From Candidatus Rifleibacteriota bacterium (lineage in GTDB: Bacteria > Muiribacteriota > Ozemobacteria > Ozemobacterales > Ozemobacteraceae): 64,000 nt of DNA. Made by a program: the position numbers and the translations under genes. The notes below the pieces were generated by a model. The model saw only the letters and a program-made list of their open reading frames with translations. It did no database searches and was not told the origin of the DNA. Where the stretch lies: positions 1 through 64,000 of the forward strand of contig JAAYVD010000123.1 of NCBI GenBank assembly GCA_012517355.1, written 5' to 3'. This document shows positions 2,870 through 63,945 of this stretch, piece by piece (within the stretch, counting starts at the first letter, position 1; each line of letters starts with the position of its first letter).

Positions 2870-4774
2870 ATGAGCGTCGAAGCCAACAACCGCAAGATCG
2901 AGGTCCTGACCGAAGAAGATCTCCCGATGGACTGGGAGCGGATCGCCATCCTCGGCGCCACCCTGGTCATCCTGTTCTTCTACACGCGCGCCAGCCCCTT
3001 CCCCGCCGGCACCTACTGGGACCTGCTCTTCGCCCGCGACTTCGATCTCAACATCGGCTGGGCCCTGTTGCCCGAAGCGCTGTCCTACACGATCGTGCAG
3101 ACCTCGGCTTCCCTCATCGGGCTGAAGACGGTCTACCACATCGCCTATTTCCTGCTGTGCGCGATCGTCGCCGTCTGGGCCTTCAAGGGCAAGGAGATCC
3201 TGCCCGGTATCGTGGTGCTGGGCATCTTCGCCTTCGGCCTGCAGCCGATCCTGACCCTCCGCTGGACCCTGCAGCTGCTGTTCCTGGCCGGGCTGATCAG
3301 CATGTTCGACGGGCCGTATCTGAAGGACGTCTTCGGAGTCGCCCTGATCCCCGTCACCGCCGCCGCCAGCGCCCTCGGCCTGAACAGCTGGCTGCTGCTG
3401 GCGCTCATCGTCGTCCACGTGCTGGTCAACGACGAGTTCCGGCTGTCGTTGATCCTGTGCGGACTGATGGGCATCCTGTTCTTCCCCGAGGGGGCCGCCA
3501 GCTCGGTCGCCCACGCCCCCCTGTCGACCCTGTTCCAGCGCCCCGATGACGCCAAGATGCTCACCCTGCTCGGCGGCATCTTCCTGGTGCCCAACCTCCT
3601 GGCCTTGCCGCGCATGGGCGAGGAAGACCTGCCCTCGCTGATCTTCTACGCCCTGACCGGCATCCTGTCGCTGGTCGATCCCAGTTTCATCCCCTGCTTC
3701 ATCCTGGTCGGCACCTTCCTGATCTTCCTCAACCTGGCCGACATCGAGCCGCTCTCGACGGGCACCCGGCTGGTGGGAATCCTGCTGCTGGCGGTGGTCT
3801 TGCACGTCTCGCTGTTCCTCAACCCCATCGGCTTCAGCCTCAACCCGACCGTGCGCGGGGAACTGGGCTCCCAGCTGGCCACCCTGATGACCACCAACTA
3901 CGAGCAGCGCCGCATCGACGTCCACGAGATGGGCGAGCTGGCCTGGAAGGGCCTGGTCCAGATCGATGCCGACGACCTGCCCACGCTGCTGGCCCACCGC
4001 TCCTGGCCCATCACCATCCAGAACAAGGATGGCACGATGGAATGGTACTCCGACCTGACCCGCAACCAGGAAAAAATGGCCCAGGCCGGGAATCGCCAGC
4101 CCGACGCCCTGCCCACCCCCCTGCCCCTCCCCCTCCACCCGGATTCAGCCGCCGCCCAGCCCGACGCGGCCCGGTTCCAGGCCCATACCCTGGAACGGCC
4201 CATCGCCCCCGGCGACCAGCCCGGCGAATGCGGCGACACCACACCCGATGAGCTGATGGCCCCGCCCCCGGCCGGCGAACCGGGCAGCCCGGGGGAATCC
4301 TCCCCGGAGGAAACCGGGGTCCAGGAAGCCCCGCCGGCTGGCGAACCCGGGATGGAACCCTCGATCGAAGAGGCCGGCCCCGCCCCGGCTGGCGAATTCC
4401 CTGCCGCCGGGCCCGAGATTCCCCCCGCCGCGACCACCCCGGAACCTGGTGAACCGCCGATGCCGGTTCCCCCGGGCGAATCGGAAGTGAGCCTGCCTGC
4501 CGTGGAGCCCGGATCAGAACCGCCCCCTGTCGAGCCCGGCCCGGCCCCGTCCGCCGGTGAACCCCTCCCCCCCGGCCCGGCCACCCCGGAACCCGGCGAT
4601 GCCGGCCCGGCCCCAGTTCGCGCCGCCCCTGATCCGGGGACGACCTCCTCGCCGGATTCCCCGGCGCCCCCCCTCCCCGCCGGCATGGAGCCCGCCCCTG
4701 GTCAGAACCAGCTCCCCGCGGCCCCGCTTCCCGGACTGCCCGAGCCCGGCGCCCCCGACCCCCTGGAAGACTGA
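2870..4774 (+). CDS. Polytopic membrane protein with proline/glycine-rich C-terminal tail
   Basis: Unrecognised 634-residue protein. Residues about 25-330 contain roughly eight to ten hydrophobic segments, so this half should be an integral inner-membrane domain. Residues about 335-395 form a soluble segment rich in charged and aromatic residues. Residues about 400-634 are a low-complexity tail rich in Pro, Gly, Glu and Ala, with many PAGEPG-like units. It starts 55 bases after the molybdenum hydroxylase stop and could be cotranscribed with it, but nothing shows a functional link. GAGG lies upstream of the ATG. No transporter or enzyme motif was seen. The tail's codon use is dominated by CCC/CCG/GGC and it probably evolves by repeat slippage. 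Confidence 0.7.
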   Translation: MSVEANNRKIEVLTEEDLPMDWERIAILGATLVILFFYTRASPFPAGTYWDLLFARDFDLNIGWALLPEALSYTIVQTSASLIGLKTVYHIAYFLLCAIVAVWAFKGKEILPGIVVLGIFAFGLQPILTLRWTLQLLFLAGLISMFDGPYLKDVFGVALIPVTAAASALGLNSWLLLALIVVHVLVNDEFRLSLILCGLMGILFFPEGAASSVAHAPLSTLFQRPDDAKMLTLLGGIFLVPNLLALPRMGEEDLPSLIFYALTGILSLVDPSFIPCFILVGTFLIFLNLADIEPLSTGTRLVGILLLAVVLHVSLFLNPIGFSLNPTVRGELGSQLATLMTTNYEQRRIDVHEMGELAWKGLVQIDADDLPTLLAHRSWPITIQNKDGTMEWYSDLTRNQEKMAQAGNRQPDALPTPLPLPLHPDSAAAQPDAARFQAHTLERPIAPGDQPGECGDTTPDELMAPPPAGEPGSPGESSPEETGVQEAPPAGEPGMEPSIEEAGPAPAGEFPAAGPEIPPAATTPEPGEPPMPVPPGESEVSLPAVEPGSEPPPVEPGPAPSAGEPLPPGPATPEPGDAGPAPVRAAPDPGTTSSPDSPAPPLPAGMEPAPGQNQLPAAPLPGLPEPGAPDPLED

Positions 4775-5016
4775 TCAGGAGCCGATTCCCCCGGTCCGAT
4801 TTGCCTCCCCACCCGCCCCAGACCACTGGGCGTTGTCGTGCTGGTCCCGGGAATGGATCGGGGGCGGGCGACCGACGACGACCAGGACGGGGGACCCCCG
4901 CCGTTGCCGAGGGCGAAACAAAGGGTGCGGGCCCGCCTTCCGCCCCAGGCTAGGCGCCTGGCCGCATACCGGCTGGGGCAGAGGGGATGCGCGTTCCCCA
5001 CCAAACCAGTGCCATA

Positions 5017-5479
5017 CCAGCATCCTGACTGACGGTCTTTCCTCTATCCTCATCAACCTATCGATTCTGCCTTCGTCGCCTTGGCTGGCTACCCCCTTCG
5101 CCCCTTCCCCCATTTCTCCCCTTCCCCTGTTGTTCCCGGGGTTTCAAATGATGTGTTGAAGGCGGGAAAAAAGGACACTCCAGCATCTCGACTGACGCAT
5201 CCATTCCTCTTTCTGCATCAACCCATCGATTCTGACCATGCCGATCATGCTGGCGACTCCCTTCGCCACTTCCCCCCCGCTCCCTTTCCCCTGCCGTCCT
5301 CGAGGTTCCTGTCGAAAGGCTGAATTCTCGACGTTCCAGCATCCCGACTGCCCCATCTCACCTTCTCCCTCATCCCCCGATCGATTCAGCCTACCCGACC
5401 AGGCTGGCGACTTCCCCCGCCCCTTCCCCCCTTGCTGTCGTTCTCGAGGGTTCAAACGATGTGTGTGCAGGCCAAAAAG
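5017..5479. repeat. Three imperfect tandem copies of a 143-163-bp repeat
   Basis: Copies begin at 5017, 5180 and 5336. Each starts CCAGCATC-CGACTG, then has a TCAT/GCATCAACC-ATCGATTC-like block, a GGCTGGC-ACTCCC block, a C/T-rich stretch (CGCCCCTTCCCCC), and ends near TTCAAA-GATGTGT or an equivalent. The array fills most of the gap between two convergent genes (4775-5523). The plus strand is strongly pyrimidine-rich. I see no coding potential; the first 240 bases of the gap (4775-5016) hold nothing I can identify. Confidence 0.7.
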
Positions 5480-7203: not shown

Positions 7204-7283
7204 CCCGTTGGCGATGTGCGCTGCGGTTGTTTCACGCCCGTCCGTGGCGGCCAAGGGGAAGTTCCGACATCGTGCCGTTCGGG
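7204..7283 (-). repeat. Copy of the 78-bp hairpin repeat (intergenic)
   Basis: The reverse complement of this stretch aligns along its length with the copies at 59306-59388 and 28584-28666. Shared blocks are CACGATGTCGGAA (CACGACGTCGGAA elsewhere), GCCGCCACGG and GTGAAAC...GCGCACATCGCCAA. Several hairpin arms have decayed. The copy lies directly upstream of the extended -10 promoter at 7290. The rest of the divergent gap 7057-7420 holds only the two promoters. Confidence 0.7.
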
Positions 7284-9636: not shown

Positions 9637-12210
9637 TCAATTTTCTTCGGTGGGTACTAATTCAAAGTTGAAGCTCAGGGCGGGCTGTTCGGAGGCCGCC
9701 TCGGCGGGGGCGGGCCGGCCCGGCAGCGCCGGCCGGGCGGCCAGGGGGGGGTAGTAGGTCAGCGCGGCCCCGGGGAAGGCGGCGAGGTCGGCCGGGGTGG
9801 CGGCCAGCGCCTTCATGGCCAGCGACCCGGCCAGGGCGGTGGCGCGGCCCCCCTCGAACCGGAGCCGGCCGTTGGCCACCAGGCCGGCCTGGATCTCGGT
9901 CCCGTCGGGGCCGGTCAGTCGGATGTCCCCGTGCAGGGCGGCCAGCTGCAGGATGGCGTGCGGCCGTTGCCCCGCCAGGGGGCGGATGGACGCCCCGATG
10001 ACCAGCTCGCCCTCCTCGAGGTGGATCCCCCCGTTGCCGAGGTAGGAGAGCGGCCGGTCGAGGACCAGGCGACCGGACGGCGACCGCACCAGGATCAGCC
10101 CGTCCAGGGACAGCACGCCGTTCCAGAGCAGGCCCCGCCGCTGCAGGGCGGTCCACAGGTCCACGTCCGGGCCGGCGGGGATGGTCAGCACGTAGGCATA
10201 CCGGCTCTGGTCGCGGATGGGGGCGAGGAAAGGGGCCATCTCGCGCAGCGAGGTCACCCCGGGCAGGCCCCGGAAGGCTTCGGGCACGGCATGCTTCTCC
10301 TCGTCGGTGGCGTCGCCCTTGCAGAACCGTATCAGAGGGTCCGAGTCGGGGAAGGCGGTCCAGGGGTCGGGCACCGTCCGGTTGTGGGCGAACGGCACTG
10401 CCAGGTTGACCTGGCGCGGCCCGATGAACGAGGAATGGCGCATGATGTATTCCCCCAGCGAGTCCGCGGTGCCGGAGATCAGCCCCGCCTCGCGCAGCAG
10501 GGCCAGCTTGCCGTTGGGGATGGTGCTTTCCATCTGGAATTTGAGCGGGTCCTCGTACAGGAACAGCCGTTCCCGGGCCCGGACCTGGTTCCAGGGCGGG
10601 CCCCGCAGCCGCTCGCTCTGGTACAGGCGCGCCATCAGCACGTGGGCGGCCACGTTGCCCAGCACCAGCGTCGGCGACCGGTTGGCATCGACCCCGTTGA
10701 GCCGGAAGACCGAACTCTCCTGCATGTGGTAGGAATCACGGAACAGCGGCCAGAAACGGGTCGAGGCCTCCTGCCGGATCAGGTCGTAGAACAGCCTGAC
10801 GTTGTCGTGGGAACTGGGGGAACAGCCGATCTCCATCTGGTAGAACCGCAGGTCGCCACCCCCCGGCAAGGGGGCGTATCCGCACCACCAGAACCCGTCC
10901 CCTCCCGATTTGCGGAACAGCTGGAAGCCTTCGCCGTGCGTGGCGTCGAGCCCGGTGGCCGGCGAGTAGGCGAGGTTCAGCCGCAGCTCCGTCGGTCCGC
11001 CCAGGTAGACCAGGCCCCGTGGGGCTTCCACGAACCGGTCCATCGTGGTCTCGACCGTCAGCGGGCCATTGGGCGACCCGGGACCGTCGTTGTCGAGGAT
11101 CAGCGGGGCGGCGGGGGAGTCGGGCATCAGGGCCCCGTTCTCGTCCACGCGCACCCGGTTGTACTCGTAGGTGGTCGTCGACTCGGGAAACCCCGCGTTT
11201 TCGACGTAGAGGGTGAACTTCGACAGGACCGGGGTCAGCGGGGCGACCACCTTGACCGGGCAGACATAGGAGAACTCCTCCGAGAGCGCCTGGCCCCCCG
11301 GCTTCTGCAGTTCGAGCCGGACGAGCAGCCGGATCCTCCCCTTCTTCTCGCGTCGGAACCCGGCCCCCGCCAGCCCGAACTCCTGGAAGTCCTCGGGCTG
11401 GCACCGGTAGCGGATGTGGAACACGAACTGCCCCATCCGCGCCAGCGGCCCGGTGATGTCCTGCGTGATCGTCTCGAGGTCGCTGGTCGGCACCTCGCCC
11501 AGGTCGACCTCCCCCTCGACGGGATCCATTTCGGCCCGTGGCCGCGCCAACTGCTGAAACAGCGGGAACAGGGACTCGGAATCGCTCTCCCGCTCGGGGA
11601 AGCTGCCCCCCGAATTCGCCGCCAGCAGCGGGCCGAACTGGATCTTGTGGACGGCCAGCGTGGCCAGCGACCGGGCCACCCGCGACAGCAGGTGCTGGCG
11701 GGTTCCCCGCGCCCGCAGCCGCCGTTGTGACTGCATGTAGTTCAGGTATCCCACCGCGTACAGGGCGATGCAGAACAGCAGTCCCAACGCCAGCAACAGA
11801 ATCGAGCCCCGCCGCCCCGCCCGGACGGCGGCCCCCTGGCCAGGCGAAAACCCGGCGCTTCGCGCCGTCACCCGCGGCGGCGTGGGGAAATTGCCGGCCT
11901 TGCAGGGGTCGGGGCGGTGTCTGGAGACCGCGCCAGCCGTCGCCGCAGGGGCGGGCATGCCCTGACCCCCGACCGCCGACAGACCGACTCCCAGTCCTCT
12001 CGCGCAACGGGAAATTCGCGCGGACCTCCGCGACGGCAGGAGGGGCCTGCCGGCGTCATGTCGGTCGGGGCGCGGCTTGGGCACCGCTCCTGCCGAGGCA
12101 GGAGCAGCATTACTGTCCCGACTTCCGATCGTCTGCCGGTCTGGACGTCGGCGGGGCAGGGGCTTGCCGGGGGAGTCGGGAGCCGGGTTCAGGGAGCCGG
12201 GTTCGGCCAT
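9637..12210 (-). CDS. Large PilX/GspK-like membrane-anchored protein with repeat-derived N-terminal extension
   Basis: An 857-residue protein. Its single hydrophobic segment (about 135-158, RRGSILLLALGLLFCIALYA) and the following YLNYMQSQRRLRARG helix resemble the N-terminus of PilX/GspK-type minor pilins. A large ectodomain (about 170-857) has no motif I recognise. Residues 1-134 are unlike any pilin leader: they are Arg/Pro-rich and made of about four units of 25-26 residues, encoded by the 78-bp repeats at 11839-12150. ATG 12210 has an excellent Shine-Dalgarno (GGGAGG, 5 bases away), so the extension appears to be translated; an internal ATG at 11958 lies inside the third unit and has a weak ribosome site. 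The start overlaps the preceding gene by 22 bases. With this extension, normal prepilin peptidase processing looks doubtful. Confidence 0.75.
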   Translation of the reverse strand: MAEPGSLNPAPDSPGKPLPRRRPDRQTIGSRDSNAAPASAGAVPKPRPDRHDAGRPLLPSRRSARISRCARGLGVGLSAVGGQGMPAPAATAGAVSRHRPDPCKAGNFPTPPRVTARSAGFSPGQGAAVRAGRRGSILLLALGLLFCIALYAVGYLNYMQSQRRLRARGTRQHLLSRVARSLATLAVHKIQFGPLLAANSGGSFPERESDSESLFPLFQQLARPRAEMDPVEGEVDLGEVPTSDLETITQDITGPLARMGQFVFHIRYRCQPEDFQEFGLAGAGFRREKKGRIRLLVRLELQKPGGQALSEEFSYVCPVKVVAPLTPVLSKFTLYVENAGFPESTTTYEYNRVRVDENGALMPDSPAAPLILDNDGPGSPNGPLTVETTMDRFVEAPRGLVYLGGPTELRLNLAYSPATGLDATHGEGFQLFRKSGGDGFWWCGYAPLPGGGDLRFYQMEIGCSPSSHDNVRLFYDLIRQEASTRFWPLFRDSYHMQESSVFRLNGVDANRSPTLVLGNVAAHVLMARLYQSERLRGPPWNQVRARERLFLYEDPLKFQMESTIPNGKLALLREAGLISGTADSLGEYIMRHSSFIGPRQVNLAVPFAHNRTVPDPWTAFPDSDPLIRFCKGDATDEEKHAVPEAFRGLPGVTSLREMAPFLAPIRDQSRYAYVLTIPAGPDVDLWTALQRRGLLWNGVLSLDGLILVRSPSGRLVLDRPLSYLGNGGIHLEEGELVIGASIRPLAGQRPHAILQLAALHGDIRLTGPDGTEIQAGLVANGRLRFEGGRATALAGSLAMKALAATPADLAAFPGAALTYYPPLAARPALPGRPAPAEAASEQPALSFNFELVPTEEN
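11839..12150 (-). repeat. Array of about four 78-bp hairpin repeats inside a pilin-like gene
   Basis: On the coding strand, units begin at about 12147, 12072, 11994 and 11916, which is a period of 75-78 bp or 25-26 codons. RPDR/RPDP recurs at residues 22, 47 and 99, with a decayed unit at about 73. The second unit is the best match to the copies at 28584 and 59306 (GACCGACATGACGCCGG, GCCG-CGCGGAGG, GCGCGAATTTCCCGTTGCGC). The first unit keeps GACCGGCAGACGATCGGAAG and then diverges into a palindrome (CTCCTGCCTCGGCAGGAG). All units keep the gene's frame. Confidence 0.75.
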
Positions 12211-17837: not shown

Positions 17838-18336
17838 TCCCCCTGAGCTCGCTGCCCGGCCGCCCAACGGCTGCCCGCTCTTGCTTTCTCCTTACCCTCT
17901 TTCCTTTCCCCTCCTGAGTCCCGCCGGTCCAACCGCTGCCCGCTCTTCCTTCCTCCTTGCCCTCTTCACTTTCCCCCTCCTGAGCCCCGCCGCCGAGCGC
18001 TCCTCTGCCTGTCCAACGGCTGCCGATCGCCCTTTCTCCCCCTTCTCCCTTTCCCCTTTTCCTCCTGCCTTCCCTGTTTCCCTCCCCTTCCCCTTTTCCT
18101 CCTTTCCTCCCATGTAGTTTCCCCTAACCTCCCCATTTCTCCTTCCTTGTTCCTCCGATCTTCTCCCTCACCCCTGCCTGCCACCACGCGCCAGCCAGTC
18201 CCTTCCGCCACCGCTCTCCCCTTCCCCCCCTTCTCCCTTTCCCCTATTCCTTCTTCCTTCCCTGTTTGCTTCACCTTCCCCTTGCCCTTTCCCTTCGTTA
18301 CTCCCATGTAGCTTCCCCTGTTCTCCCCATTTCCAC
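17838..18336. repeat. Pyrimidine-rich block with nested tandem repeats
   Basis: The plus strand is almost entirely C and T for about 500 bases in the gap 17672-18444. Three units of 66-71 bp share CTGAG-(C)CCGCCG...CAACGGCTGCCCGCTCTT...CTCCTTGCCCTCTT, with CTGAG at 17843, 17914 and 17980. A second, 105-110-bp direct repeat (18038-18142 and 18225-18334) is anchored by CCCATGTAGTTTCCCCT-like text. No credible gene lies in the block. Confidence 0.65.
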
Positions 18337-22055: not shown

Positions 22056-22136
22056 GCAGGACCTCCTGGAACGGGGAAATCGGAAGGACGTTGCGCGCAT
22101 GGTACCCGAACCCGCCCCCGCCGACAATACCACCGC

Positions 22137-22203
22137 GAATTCCGGGGACACATGACTTAACTGCGCAAAAAGCGGGCAATTAAGTCATGTGTCCCCGGAA
22201 TTC
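22137..22203. repeat. Perfect 24-bp inverted repeat (GGGGACACATGACTTAA family)
   Basis: Arms 22137-22160 and 22180-22203 are exact reverse complements, separated by 19 bases. The arms contain CGGGGACACATGACTTAA, also found with variations in five places at 63.6-63.9 kb. The arm is followed by a run of GGAATTCC-type palindromes to about 22265. The motif resembles the text I associate with REP-type transposase neighbourhoods; no transposase gene is present here. Together these occupy the gap 22056-22327. Confidence 0.75.
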
Positions 22204-22327
22204 CCGGAATTCGGCGGAATCCGGAATTCCGGAATTCCGGAATTCGCGCGGAATTCGCGAAATTCGAAATCTCGCTCCGGGCGGTGGGCGCGGGACTTCC
22301 GGGATTCCCCATCCCTGGCAGGAAGGG

Positions 22328-24655: not shown

Positions 24656-24970
24656 CAGACCGGCACGATGCCGGCCATACCCCCTGATCATCTCCTTCCA
24701 TCGGCGTGGAGACCCTGGTTCTCGCCTTGCCAGGAGGCCGACCGGGACGAGGTTGGATGGGCTTCCCCCTTTGCGGCCAAAGGCGGCGCGCAACGCCCGT
24801 TTCGCTCCGCGCCAGGAGGCCCACCGACACGTTGCTGTCTTCAACCCTGGCGACCCAGGAGGGCGGGGCGATACGGACGGTTCGCGCCCGGCCAGACGGT
24901 CCTCTCCTCCGTGCCCTGGTTGTGGCCGGGAAACGGGCATCCCAGGCGGTTGCCCTTGGCCGTCCCACCC
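24656..24970 (+). repeat. Tandem array of diverged 78-bp hairpin repeats between divergent promoters
   Basis: Units start at about 24656, 24738 and 24812 (spacing 82 and 74), each beginning GACCGG-ACGA or CACCGACACG. The second unit is clearest: GGCGGCGCGCAACGCCCGTTTCGC matches the hairpin core of the copy at 28584-28666. The third keeps CCGACACG, GGCGGGGCGATACGGACGGTTCGCGC. A fourth, much decayed unit may extend to 24970. The array fills the space between the helicase promoter and the bamA promoter and includes no supported gene (gap 24554-25045). Confidence 0.6.
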
Positions 24971-28567: not shown

Positions 28568-29318
28568 ACGCCCTGCCCCGCCCCCGACCGACAGGAGGTC
28601 GGAAGTGCCCCCTTGCCGCCACGGAGGGCGGCGCGAAACCCCCGTTTCGCGCATCGCAAAGGGGCCGTCCCGCGCCCTGCTGCTCCTGGCCTTCGTCCTG
28701 GCCCTGGCCGCCGCCTTCTGCAGTGGCCCCGTCGCGGCCAGCCCCGAAGCGGACACCGGTTTCCGCCTGCGCTACATGGGGTCGGGCTGCCTGTCCATCC
28801 CCACCGGATACTGCCGTACCGAAGCGGCTTACATCAGCGACGACAGCCATTCCCTCACCCAGATCGCCCAGCAGGTGCTGGGGAAGTTCGCCGAACTGTC
28901 CATGGTCCGCCACCTCAACGGGACCCACAAGAACGAGAACGTCCTCAACCTGAAGGTCAATATCCTCGAGGAGGGTGACTACCTGCCGAACCTTGTCTGG
29001 GGGGTGTCCGACTTCCAGACCGAACTGGGCTCGAAGATCTTCTACGTCGCCGGCTCCAAGACCGTCGATGCCTTCGGGGTGACCATCCACGCCGGCATCT
29101 ACAAGGACCCGGTCACCACCGACAAAAAGGAATTCTTCGGTCTGGAAAAGACCATCCTGCCCCTGGTGGTGGCCGCCGGCGAACGGATCGACGGCAAGAC
29201 CACCGCCGGTCTGAAGATCCGGCCCTATCCTGGGGTCAGCGTCGAATACGCGCGCCGCCTCGATGCCAACGACGACCAGGCCAGCCTCTACCGGCTGGTC
29301 TATCTCCGCTCCTTCTGA
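28560..29318 (+). CDS. Exported protein of unknown function within the lpx cluster
   Basis: A 252-residue protein. Residues about 10-37 are encoded by a copy of the 78-bp hairpin repeat (PTDRRSEVPPCRHGGRRETP...), directly followed by a hydrophobic signal segment (about 41-58, ALLLLAFVLALAAAFCSG). The mature part (about 62-252) is predicted to be beta-rich with alternating polar and hydrophobic residues and ends in an aromatic residue (YLRSF), as outer-membrane barrels do; a small outer-membrane barrel is therefore possible. The ATG overlaps the lpxD stop by eight bases, so translation is coupled. Without the repeat the signal peptide would have a normal length. I do not recognise a family; its position suggests a role in envelope biogenesis. 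Confidence 0.7.
   Translation: MNRRPAPPPTDRRSEVPPCRHGGRRETPVSRIAKGPSRALLLLAFVLALAAAFCSGPVAASPEADTGFRLRYMGSGCLSIPTGYCRTEAAYISDDSHSLTQIAQQVLGKFAELSMVRHLNGTHKNENVLNLKVNILEEGDYLPNLVWGVSDFQTELGSKIFYVAGSKTVDAFGVTIHAGIYKDPVTTDKKEFFGLEKTILPLVVAAGERIDGKTTAGLKIRPYPGVSVEYARRLDANDDQASLYRLVYLRSF
28584..28666 (+). repeat. Well-preserved 78-bp hairpin repeat inside an exported-protein gene
   Basis: One copy in the same orientation as the gene. Hairpins: CCGAC...GTCGG, GCCGCC...GGCGGC, and the perfect GCGCGAAAC-CCCC-GTTTCGCGC. It begins 24 bases after the start codon and ends just before the signal-peptide core, and it is read without a stop. Confidence 0.85.
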
Positions 29319-57208: not shown

Positions 57209-58006
57209 TCAGGGTTCCTTTTCGGAACTGGTGAAGTGGATGGCCCCCTGTTCGATCCTGATCTCTTTGAGGTTCAAACGGAAGGGGAACTTCTTCAGAT
57301 TTAGGACGGGGTTGATCTTCTTGACGATCGTCCCGATGAAGGCGCGGGGCATGCTCAGGTTGTTCATCTTCATGTTGCGGGCATGGAACCAGATCTCCTG
57401 GCCGTCGTGGATCGAGAACCCGCCCGAGGCCCAGAACTTGACCTTGACGAATCCGTAGCGGGTGGAGCCCTGCAGTTCCATCTTGTCCGGTTGCAGGTCG
57501 ACGCGGGGGTTGTCGACCTTGATGCCCTTCGACTTGGCGACGAGGAAGGCGTTCAGGTCGGCTTCCAGGATGGTGACGTTCATGTCGATGTTCTTCACCT
57601 GGACCACGTCGATCTTCTCTTCCTTCACCAGCTTGGTGGTATCGAGCTGGACGTCGTGGAAGTCGATGTCGGCTCTCTCGAGCACCAGGTTGTCGACGTT
57701 GCCGCGCGCCTCGCGGACGCTGATCAGGTCGACGAACCCGCGGCTGCGGGCGACGGGATCGCGCGTGGTGACGGTGATGGTCAGGGTGGCGGGGTCTTTC
57801 AGGACCTTGCGCATGGCCAGGTCGAGCTGGCGCTCGAGAAGGCCGGGGTCGGAGGCGAGACGGGCGGTGATCTCGGGGTCTGGGGTCCAGCTGGCCACGG
57901 CCGGTCCGGAGGCGGCTTCGGCCCAGGCCAGGCGGGGGGCGGCGGCCAGGCAGAGGATGACGAGCAAGGCGAGGGGGAAGATGCTCATGGCGGTGGGGCG
58001 GCTCAT
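57209..58006 (-). CDS. Exported DUF2993-like (LmeA-type) lipid-binding protein
   Basis: A 265-residue protein with signal peptide 1-29 (AWAEA) and a mature domain of alternating amphipathic strands, with VDLISVREARGNVDNLVLER, ADIDFHDVQLDTTKL and PRAFIGTIVKKINPVLNLKK. This is the pattern of DUF2993/LmeA-type proteins, whose extended beta-sheet binds lipids. It would act in the periplasm, perhaps in lipid trafficking, which fits the nearby permease gene of LptF/G type. ATG 58006 has AAGGAGA upstream and overlaps the preceding stop by four bases (ATGA). Confidence 0.7.
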   Translation of the reverse strand: MSRPTAMSIFPLALLVILCLAAAPRLAWAEAASGPAVASWTPDPEITARLASDPGLLERQLDLAMRKVLKDPATLTITVTTRDPVARSRGFVDLISVREARGNVDNLVLERADIDFHDVQLDTTKLVKEEKIDVVQVKNIDMNVTILEADLNAFLVAKSKGIKVDNPRVDLQPDKMELQGSTRYGFVKVKFWASGGFSIHDGQEIWFHARNMKMNNLSMPRAFIGTIVKKINPVLNLKKFPFRLNLKEIRIEQGAIHFTSSEKEP

Positions 58007-59988
58007 CGCCGGTCTCCTTCCACGATGGGGGTGCCGTAACCGCCGTGGGGCACGCGCGGCAGCAGGTCGAGCCAGGCGTCCCAGAGGGTCAGGCCGCGCC
58101 GGCCGGAGGGGCGGGCGGCGCCCAGAAACGGCTGGACGACGGGGTCCAGATACAGGTTGGCATCCATCATGACCCGGTACTTCTTCGCATCCTCGATCGG
58201 CCGGTCCTGCACGGTCGCCGGGCGGGGCACCCCGCCCAGGAAACGGGCCCAACCGCCGGCCAGGCCGATCCTGAAGGGAAAGGTACCACGTCCGATGGCG
58301 AAAAACAACGTCTTCAACACCTTTCCCGACACCTGGTACTCGCGCAGATACCGGTTTTCGAAGCGGGGCAGCAGGACGGCCGGGGAAAGGGCGCGTTCGT
58401 CCCCGGGGGGCTCGTCGGCGACGGCCACCAGCCCCAGGTCGGAACGGCCGGCCGTCTTCGCCAGGCAGGCATGGAAGGTCGGGGACAATCGGTAGAGGCT
58501 GCGGGCGGCGAGGTCGCGGGTCGACAGGTAGTAACGGGGGGTCTGCCAGTCCTTCCGGAAGAGGGCGAGGTGCGGGGCCCCAAGGGCCTCGCCGGCAGCC
58601 TCGAGGCGGGCGCGGTCGAGGGGGAACCGGTGCCACCGCTCGGCGTCGGGGGCCCCTTCCCGGCTTTCGCGGCGGTACACCGAGACCTCGGTGCCGAACG
58701 GGGCGATCTCCCAGACCGTTGGTTCGGGCCGGGGTTCGGGGGGGGCGGCGAAGCAGTCGCGGCGGCGCGGCGGCGGCGGGGCGGGGGGATAGGCGGCTCC
58801 CAGGCCGAGACGGCGCGGGGAAGGCGGCTGTTCCTTGGCGGTGCGCGAAACATCCGTTTCACCCTGCCAACCGTCGCGGCGAAAGGGCTCTTCCGGAAAC
58901 GGGCCGGTCGGCCCCTTTGCGATGCGCGAAACGGGCGTTTCGCGTCGCCATTCGTGTCGGCCCAGGGGCCCTTCCGGCCTCGTGTCGGTCGGCTTCTCCG
59001 GCGTGGCCGCGGCCAAATCGGCGGGCGGCCCGACCAGCAGGAAGCGGGCGCGGGGGTCGGCTTCGGCGAGCAGTTCCCGCAGGTCGCCACCGTCGAGATG
59101 GCAGACCACCAGCAGCACATCGGCGCCGGCCAGGTCGGGCCGCAGGCGTCGCAGGCAGCGCGCGGGGTTTTCCGCGCCCTCGATGCCCCATTCCCGGGTC
59201 GGGAGGTCGGCCAAAAATGCAGTGCTGATCAGGCTCAGCACCGCGATCGAGCGTCCGCCCGCCGCTACCATTTGGAAGGGGGGGAACAGGCGGGATCCGG
59301 GGTCGGCCCCTTGGCGATGCGCGAAACTGGTGTCTCGCGCCGCCAGCCGTGGCGGCAATGGGGCCCTTCCGACGTCGTGTCGGTCGGGCTCGAAGGGCTG
59401 GTCCGTGGCGCCGGTGACGGGTAGCGGGTTCGACCACACGCGGTCGTGGATTGCCGGATCGAGTCTCTTCGCCTGGCGGAACCGGGCCAGGTCGGCGGGG
59501 CCGAGGCAGCGGACGGCCGGGCGGCAGGCGGCGGCGAGGGCCTCCTCGAGTTGCCCGTTCATCAGGACCGACGAGGGGGAGAGGATCGAGTAGTCGTTCC
59601 CGACGCCGATCACCAGTGTTTCCCAGGGGCGCTCGCGGCGCAGGGCGTCGAGCAGGGCCGGGATCTGCCACGGGGGCGCGGGAACGGGGTCGCCCTGCCG
59701 GTCGAACCCGACGAGGGCGCCCTGGAGGTTCCCGACCAGGGCGATCTGGAGCGGAGCGCTCGCCCCCCGGGCCGGTTCCGGCCAGCCCAAGGTGGCGGCC
59801 AGGAGCAGGAGAACGCCGACGAAGGCGGTCCGGCAGCGGGGCAGGAGGGTGGCCGGGCCGGTCGGGTGGATGGTGGGTGCCTCAGAAGCCCGACCGGCGG
59901 TGGGGCGGTGGTGGGCGGCAAAGGTGGCGGTCGTCCGGGAAGACGGAGGAGGGGGCGGGACGGCGGGCCGGAGACGGCGCTCAGGCAT
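58003..59988 (-). CDS. Degenerate 5'-nucleotidase (UshA)-like protein with in-frame repeat insertions
   Basis: A 661-residue protein. A hydrophobic signal segment (about 54-72, [20 protein letters not shown]) comes after a 50-residue Pro/Arg-rich extension. Parts after it follow the metallophosphatase/5'-nucleotidase plan: [17 protein letters not shown] at the usual 'NDxHG' site, [14 protein letters not shown] at the 'GD' site, and a C-terminal part (about 540-640; [20 protein letters not shown]) like a 5'-nucleotidase C-terminal domain. Key metal ligands seem to be missing, so catalysis is doubtful. Residues about 201-228 and 333-386 are encoded by copies of the 78-bp repeat, read in two different frames. 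The start overlaps the permease stop by eight bases. Family assignment is tentative. Confidence 0.55.
58832..58992 (-). repeat. Two tandem 78-bp hairpin repeats inside a gene
   Basis: Copies 58832-58911 and 58912-58992, head to tail. Each has the GCGCGAAAC...GTTTCGC hairpin (with changes) and the GTGTCGG or CCGGTCGG end. On the minus strand they encode [13 protein letters not shown] and [13 protein letters not shown], 27 residues apart. Confidence 0.85.
59306..59388 (-). repeat. Single 78-bp hairpin repeat inside a gene
   Basis: Contains GCCGCCAGCCGTGGCGGC (7-bp stem), GCGCGAAAC-TGGT-GTCTCGCGC and CCGAC...GTCGG. It has the same orientation as the pair at 58832 but is read in a different frame ([20 protein letters not shown]). 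Confidence 0.85.
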
Positions 59989-63575: not shown

Positions 63576-63945
63576 GGAGACACATGACTTCATCCCGAGG
63601 ACGGTGAATTCCGGGGAGTTCCGGGGAGTTTCGGGGACACATGACCAAATTCCGGAAACCTTGATGGAATTTCGGGAGTTTTGGGGACACATGACCAAAT
63701 TCTGGAAACCCTCATGGAATGTTGCGGGGGGGAGGGAATTTTGCACGTAGGTCTCCAACGGGACGGGGTTCAGGTTCTGCGAACGAGCGAAAACGGTTCC
63801 ACTTTGGGAAGGCGTTTTCCAGATGAGGGAAGGGTCCACCGAGGCGACCGGTTCGGGGCATTGGGAGATTAAGTCATGTGTCCCCGAAATTCCGCTGAGC
63901 TGTTTGGGGCAATGGGAGAATCAAGTCATGTGTCCCCGAAATTCC
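63576..63945. repeat. Element bounded by inverted copies of GGGGACACATGAC
   Basis: The left half has the motif in one orientation at 63576, 63632 and 63682 (the last two lie in a 50-bp direct repeat with CCAAATTC-GGAAACC). The right half has it inverted at about 63871 and 63922, in a 51-bp direct repeat (GGGGCA-TGGGAGA-T-AAGTCATGTGTCCCCGAAATTCC). About 150 bases in the middle are unrelated and hold no gene. The motif matches the arms of the inverted repeat at 22137. It fills the gap 63475-63969. Confidence 0.7.

What the first reader, a model, noticed from the sequence alone, without database searches (positions are those of the whole stretch)
58832..59388. One gene carrying the same repeat in two different reading frames
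The copies at 58832-58992 are translated as ...[13 protein letters not shown]..., and the copy at 59306-59388 as ...[20 protein letters not shown]... . Orientation is the same but the frame differs. So the DNA sequence, not the peptide, is what recurs; the element must be free of stops in at least two frames. That is expected of a sequence adapted to insertion in genes.
Basis: seen in the sequence. Interest (0 to 1): 0.8.

Follow-up and report, generated by a model that had tools for sequence, protein, structure and literature searches.

The report
Dispersed hairpin repeat tolerated inside genes
A short, stop-free, GC-rich hairpin sequence that has spread to roughly a thousand places in an uncultured bacterium's genome mostly sits between genes, but sometimes lands inside one without breaking it, and in this gene it landed twice in two different reading frames.

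Summary
Three units of an ~81-nt repeat lie antisense inside one intact 661-aa ORF (58003-59988, minus). Two tandem units (58825-58992) are read as [13 protein letters not shown]; a third (59301-59387), 395 nt away, is read in another frame ([20 protein letters not shown]). The gene is not a pseudogene: same-genus orthologues match both sides and lack the third copy. The repeat is a lineage-specific family (Candidatus Ozemobacteraceae): 286 copies at 211 places in 1.89 Mb of this 7.1-Mb genome, none in 380 kb of one same-genus genome, and a 60-nt sister repeat in another. 'Adapted to insertion in genes' is not supported: only 23 of 211 places are inside genes although 87% of the DNA is coding, intergenic copies are at least as stop-free as genic ones, and a six-frame-open founder has a chance of about 0.17-0.3 at this GC. 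Surviving genic insertions do stay in frame (13 of 13 sites where a relative has one ORF), and 16 of 23 genic sites use the two mirror-image frames of the palindrome. Best reading: an RPE-like dispersed palindromic repeat, pre-adapted by 3n length, high GC and hairpins, then filtered by selection. The mobilising enzyme is unknown.

The parts
58003..59988 (-). Host ORF, 661 aa, intact; uncharacterised family conserved in the bacterial family; carries the repeat at two sites
   Evidence: orthologues and homologues; no Pfam or PDB match
58825..58911 (+). Repeat unit 1 of the tandem pair (69% to unit 2), antisense to the host ORF
   Evidence: nhmmer 58832-58909, E 2.8e-12
58906..58992 (+). Repeat unit 2 of the tandem pair; host ORF reads ...[13 protein letters not shown]...
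   Evidence: nhmmer E 3.4e-18; nearest relative found on contig C79, 90%
59301..59387 (+). Third repeat unit, separate insertion, other frame; host ORF reads [24 protein letters not shown]
   Evidence: about 36 residues absent from 10 homologues; nearest relative found on contig C172, 92.5%
7205..7278 (+). Further copy of the family, outside called genes
   Evidence: nhmmer E 7e-11, class
11831..11901 (+). Further, diverged copy at a gene edge
11998..12066 (+). Further, diverged copy at a gene edge
24658..24820 (-). Tandem pair of copies without coding sequence on both sides
28586..28665 (-). Further well-preserved copy at a gene edge
   Evidence: nhmmer E 3.6e-21

Best explanation
A lineage-specific dispersed palindromic repeat has inserted at two separate sites in an otherwise ordinary gene. 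The unit is ~81 nt and GC-rich: an outer stem enclosing two hairpins, followed by a terminal CCGAC/GTCGG hairpin. It occurs alone or in short head-to-tail arrays of 81 or 84 nt period, mostly between genes. Shown here: dispersal, restriction to this genus by an exact 21-mer, insertion polarity at the third-copy site, in-frame retention of genic insertions, and a bias among frames. Inferred: the unit moves as a non-autonomous element that adds a multiple of three nucleotides without target duplication. Genic insertions that keep the frame and give a tolerable hydrophilic peptide survive; the rest are purged. The unit's own 3' end (GGTCGG) resembles the conserved 5' junction (GGNCG), so new copies can land head-to-tail beside old ones. 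The mobilising enzyme is not identified.
For: 286 copies at 211 places in 1.886 Mb, singles or 81/84-nt arrays. Genic minority: 23 of 211 places. Third-copy insert absent from 10 homologues. No copy in 380 kb of same-genus G001; the 21-mer occurs only in one other Ozemobacteraceae MAG among 84,980 species, which has a 60-nt sister repeat. 13 of 13 sites with one ORF in G001 remain one ORF here. Pfam domains DegT, YdjC and ATP-grasp still match across inserts. Frame bias 16 of 23. The three in-gene units are not local copies of one another: nearest relatives lie on other contigs. Tandem neighbours are hardly more alike than random units (78% against 76%). Junction motif GGNCG / GG.
Against: No transposition was seen and no mobilising gene found. 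Ends at base level rest on a conservation profile, because flanks in G001 are too diverged to align at DNA level. At the tandem-pair site the relatives also have long linkers of other sequence, so a net insertion is not shown there. Genes were called with a simple codon model of my own. The copy number is extrapolated from contigs that were chosen because they held hits.
Confidence: 0.8

Rival explanations
1. The element is under selection to be readable in genes: its length (81, 84; 60 in the sister genome), six-frame openness and RETxVSR palindrome evolved because insertions in genes have to be survivable.
For: All unit lengths are 3n; consensus of this repeat and of the 60-nt sister are open in all six frames; 103 of 139 full copies six-frame open against 41 in dinucleotide shuffles; new stops at 0.65 of expectation.
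Against: Most copies lie outside genes; genic copies are not more stop-free than others, and control trinucleotides show similar deficits; openness by chance is 0.17-0.3 for such a sequence.
Confidence: 0.12
2. The two sites in this gene arose by local duplication inside the gene followed by a frameshift, not by separate insertions.
For: Same orientation; unit 2 and the third copy are 85% identical.
Against: Each is closer to copies on other contigs (90% to C79, 92.5% to C172); orthologues lack the third-copy insert and the reading frame of the flanks is unchanged.
Confidence: 0.04
3. The gene is a decaying pseudogene or an assembly artefact.
For: No Pfam match and long low-complexity linkers.
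Against: One uninterrupted ORF, about 46-60% identical to G001 on both sides of both sites, with 23 invariant columns among 10 homologues; homologues keep the same frame across the sites.
Confidence: 0.02
4. The repeat is a REP/BIME-type element mobilised by a RAYT (Y1 transposase).
For: Hairpin structure, high copy number, no target duplication detected, short conserved motif 5' of the hairpin.
Against: The only Y1_Tnp gene found in the genome (C109) is flanked by a different repeat (GGAGTTCCGGGGACATGATACC), and no copy of the 81-nt unit lies within 6 kb of it.
Confidence: 0.05

Closest known systems
Rickettsia palindromic elements, RPE (Ogata et al. 2000; reviewed in PMC2229807, PMC10969869, PMC3767692)
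   Same: Short (about 100-150 bp) palindromic repeats, dispersed, between genes and also inside genes without destroying the frame, in unrelated genes; mobilising enzyme not established.
   Different: Different phylum, GC-rich, 81 nt, tandem arrays, about ten times more copies, about 11% genic against nearly half in R. conorii (PMC10969869); no sequence comparison with RPE was made here.
Bacterial MITEs with in-frame fusions: ERIC, NEMIS/Correia, YPAL (PMC2229807)
   Same: Non-autonomous hairpin repeats, mostly intergenic, some translated in frame with host genes.
   Different: No terminal inverted repeats and no target duplication detected here; tandem arrays are common.
REP / REPIN / BIME with RAYT (PMC2817692, PMC3116915)
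   Same: High copy number, hairpins, short conserved motif before the hairpin, clusters.
   Different: Unit is 81 nt with several stems, arrays are direct rather than alternating in orientation, and no flanked RAYT was found.
MIRU of Mycobacterium (from own knowledge)
   Same: Direct tandem dispersed units of similar length between genes of operons.
   Different: No sequence comparison made; genic in-frame copies and the palindromic fold are features of the present repeat.

Membership tests
Rickettsia palindromic elements (as a kind) | Dispersed palindromic repeat in intergenic DNA and inside unrelated ORFs | tested here: met
Rickettsia palindromic elements (as a kind) | Genic insertions keep the reading frame; empty sites in relatives | tested here: met
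   13 of 13 sites
Rickettsia palindromic elements (as a family) | Sequence relationship to RPE-1 to RPE-10 | not tested
   No RPE sequences were fetched; exact 21-mer found only in Ozemobacteraceae
MITE | Terminal inverted repeats | tested here: not met
   Ends GGNCGGCCCC and GTGTCGGTCGG are not inverted copies
MITE | Target-site duplication | tested here: not met
   Scan of flanks of 93 arrays found no consistent duplication
REP/RAYT | RAYT gene flanked by the repeat in inverted orientation | tested here: not met
   Single Y1_Tnp gene flanked by another repeat
REP/BIME | Alternating orientation of units in clusters | tested here: not met
   52 of 54 multi-unit arrays have one orientation
Known structured RNA (Rfam) | Match to any Rfam family | tested here: not met
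   No match up to E = 1 in 58600-59600

The most novel reading that the evidence does not exclude
A mobile repeat family whose unit has been shaped by surviving inside genes: unit lengths of 81, 84 and 60 nt are all multiples of three, every reading frame of the consensus is open, no target duplication is made, and the palindrome gives nearly the same peptide (RETxVSR) from either strand, so that an insertion adds a harmless 27-codon linker. It would be an independent origin of the RPE strategy outside Rickettsiales, at about a thousand copies.
Probability: 0.15. Interest if true: 0.7.

Novelty: new variant of a known kind. Interest (0 to 1): 0.4.

Why it matters
In-frame palindromic insertions have been discussed mainly for Rickettsiales. 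A high-copy, GC-rich, genus-specific example in an uncultured phylum, with same-genus genomes in which the sites are empty, offers a natural set for asking which linkers proteins tolerate and whether such repeats feed protein evolution. It also warns gene callers: an ORF running through such repeats is not evidence that the repeat is coding.

Tried and rejected
1) Pseudogene or frameshift: rejected by orthologue alignments. 2) RAYT-mobilised REP: the only Y1 transposase carries another repeat. 3) Structured RNA: no Rfam hit. 4) Target-site duplication: none found. 5) Stop depletion as proof of adaptation: large against naive nulls, but not against matched controls and not stronger in genic copies. 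6) Terminator-like or REP-like placement: arrays sit in co-directional, convergent and divergent gaps (119/34/33) much as all gaps do (496/152/181), so no strong placement rule. 7) Naming the organism through the host protein in GTDB found nothing; the repeat 21-mer did. 8) One concatenated orthologue search failed on the server. 9) RNAalifold through Python gave an empty result and was replaced by direct pair counts on a structure drawn by hand. 11) Pfam and PDB gave no name for the host protein; its C-terminal part resembles 5'-nucleotidase C-terminal domains by eye only.

Full report
Observation. The ORF 58003-59988 (minus strand, 661 aa) is open throughout. Inside it repeat finder gives three copies of one 87-nt sequence, all on the plus strand: 58825-58911, 58906-58992 and 59301-59387. 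Their starts are 81 and 395 nt apart, so the first two share a frame and the third is shifted. The copies are not a chance likeness: the same sequence matches dozens of other places in the same genome, most at 83-93% identity.

Is the gene real? Orthologues in two genomes of the same genus align on both sides of both sites. At the third-copy site the window protein has about 36 extra residues (about 194-229). Two same-genus orthologues and eight more distant family homologues lack them and are joined directly. This is therefore an insertion in the window lineage, a multiple of three in length, in an intact gene. The tandem pair lies in a linker that is also long, but different in sequence, in the two same-genus genomes, so there the net insertion cannot be read off. 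The protein has no Pfam or PDB match.

The repeat family. An nhmmer profile seeded with two of the window copies and iterated found 286 copies (E < 1e-3) at 211 places in 1.886 Mb of this genome (17 contigs, GC 68%). They cover 1.15% of that DNA. Extrapolated to 7.1 Mb this is about a thousand copies; the contigs were chosen because they held hits, so this is an upper-side estimate. 157 places hold one unit; the others hold 2-4 units, nearly all head to tail, mostly 81 nt (39 of 73 spacings) or 84 nt (12) apart. Copies average 85% identity to the consensus. The consensus is predicted to fold with an outer stem (GCCCCTT/AAGGGGC), inner hairpins (GCGCGAAAC-GTTTCGCGC and CCGCC-GGCGG) and a terminal hairpin (CCGAC-GTCGG). 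Paired changes in the outer stem are about twice the shuffled expectation (60 against 31), concentrated at pair 6-54, so support for a maintained fold is modest. Conservation ends sharply at GG[A/T]CG on the left and GG on the right.

Distribution. The exact terminal 21-mer occurs, in the collection of 84,980 species genomes, only in contigs of one Candidatus Ozemobacteraceae MAG (the window's own genome may be left out there). That MAG is G002, a same-genus relative, which carries a 60-nt sister repeat sharing the terminal hairpin. No viral contig has the 21-mer. Another same-genus genome, G001, has no copy in 380 kb. The repeat therefore turns over quickly and is restricted to this genus as far as tested.

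Genic and intergenic copies. With a codon-usage gene model trained on this genome, 87% of the DNA is coding, but only 23 of 211 places have coding sequence on both sides within one ORF. Density in coding DNA is thus about fifty times lower than outside. Where homologous flanks were found in G001 and G001 has one ORF across the site, this genome keeps it open in 13 of 13 cases, with none broken. Pfam domains still match across inserts in a DegT/DnrJ aminotransferase, a YdjC-like protein and an ATP-grasp protein, although for the aminotransferase G001 has a similarly long linker of other sequence. Surviving insertions in genes are thus in frame.

Frames. Of 23 genic sites, 9 read the antisense frame [13 protein letters not shown] and 7 the sense frame MRETGVSRR. 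These two are mirror images through the palindrome. 16 of 23 against an expectation of one third has P about 4e-4. The others are spread over three more frames, the third copy in the window being one of them.

The consensus is open in all six frames. Of 139 full copies, 103 are open in all six, against 41 +/- 4 after dinucleotide shuffling. But the copies descend from one sequence, and 17% of ordinary noncoding 80-mers at GC 0.70-0.74 are also six-frame open, so the openness of the founder needs no selection. Genic copies have 0.69 stops per copy over six frames; the three non-genic classes have 0.14-0.34. Private substitutions make new stops 0.65 times as often as expected, but control trinucleotide sets give 0.67-1.03. 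The data do not show adaptation to genes; they are compatible with a fortunate founder.

Mechanism. Shown: dispersal, lineage restriction, insertion polarity at one site in this gene, frame retention, frame bias. Neighbouring tandem units are hardly more alike than random units (78% against 76%), and only 5 of 139 copies have their closest relative within 2 kb. Units 2 and 3 in this gene have their closest relatives on different contigs. I infer repeated insertion of single units, sometimes beside an existing unit whose end (GGTCGG) resembles the preferred left junction (GGNCG). Because the unit length is a multiple of three and no duplication was detected, an insertion can leave the frame intact. 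The enzyme is unknown. The only Y1 transposase gene found is flanked by another repeat, so a RAYT link is not supported.

Comparison. It works like the Rickettsia palindromic elements, which also lie in genes without destroying the frame (PMC3767692, PMC2229807, PMC10969869). Homology to them was not tested, and it differs in phylum, copy number, tandem arrangement and genic share. It fails the defining features of REP/RAYT and of MITEs that could be tested. It is filed as a new variant of a known kind.

Noticed in passing
window 22135-22204, 63624-63720, 63852-63945; contig C109 (L191) about 3990-4020 and 4950-5060: A second, unrelated repeat (GGGGACACATGAC / GGAGTTCCGGGGACATGATACC type) occurs in the window and flanks the genome's single Y1 transposase gene (C109:4387-4713), so it looks like the true REP/RAYT pair of this genome.
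   Followed up: partly
L193 1-140 (G002:C204), L182, L184: The same-genus genome G002 has a 60-nt tandem repeat that shares the terminal hairpin (TTCCGACCTCGTGTCGGTCGG) with the 81-nt unit but has another body; it is also open in all six frames.
   Followed up: partly
genome-wide, gaps between co-directional genes: Repeat arrays are more often antisense than sense to the flanking genes (76 against 43, P about 0.003).
   Followed up: no
contig C19 65452-65530 (L068, just beyond the window): A DegT/DnrJ aminotransferase carries one copy; the G001 orthologue has a linker of similar length but other sequence at the same place, so such loops may be reused insertion sites.
   Followed up: partly
window 5083-5443 and 17855-18288: Pyrimidine-rich (CCCTTTCC-type) repeats of unknown nature.
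   Followed up: no
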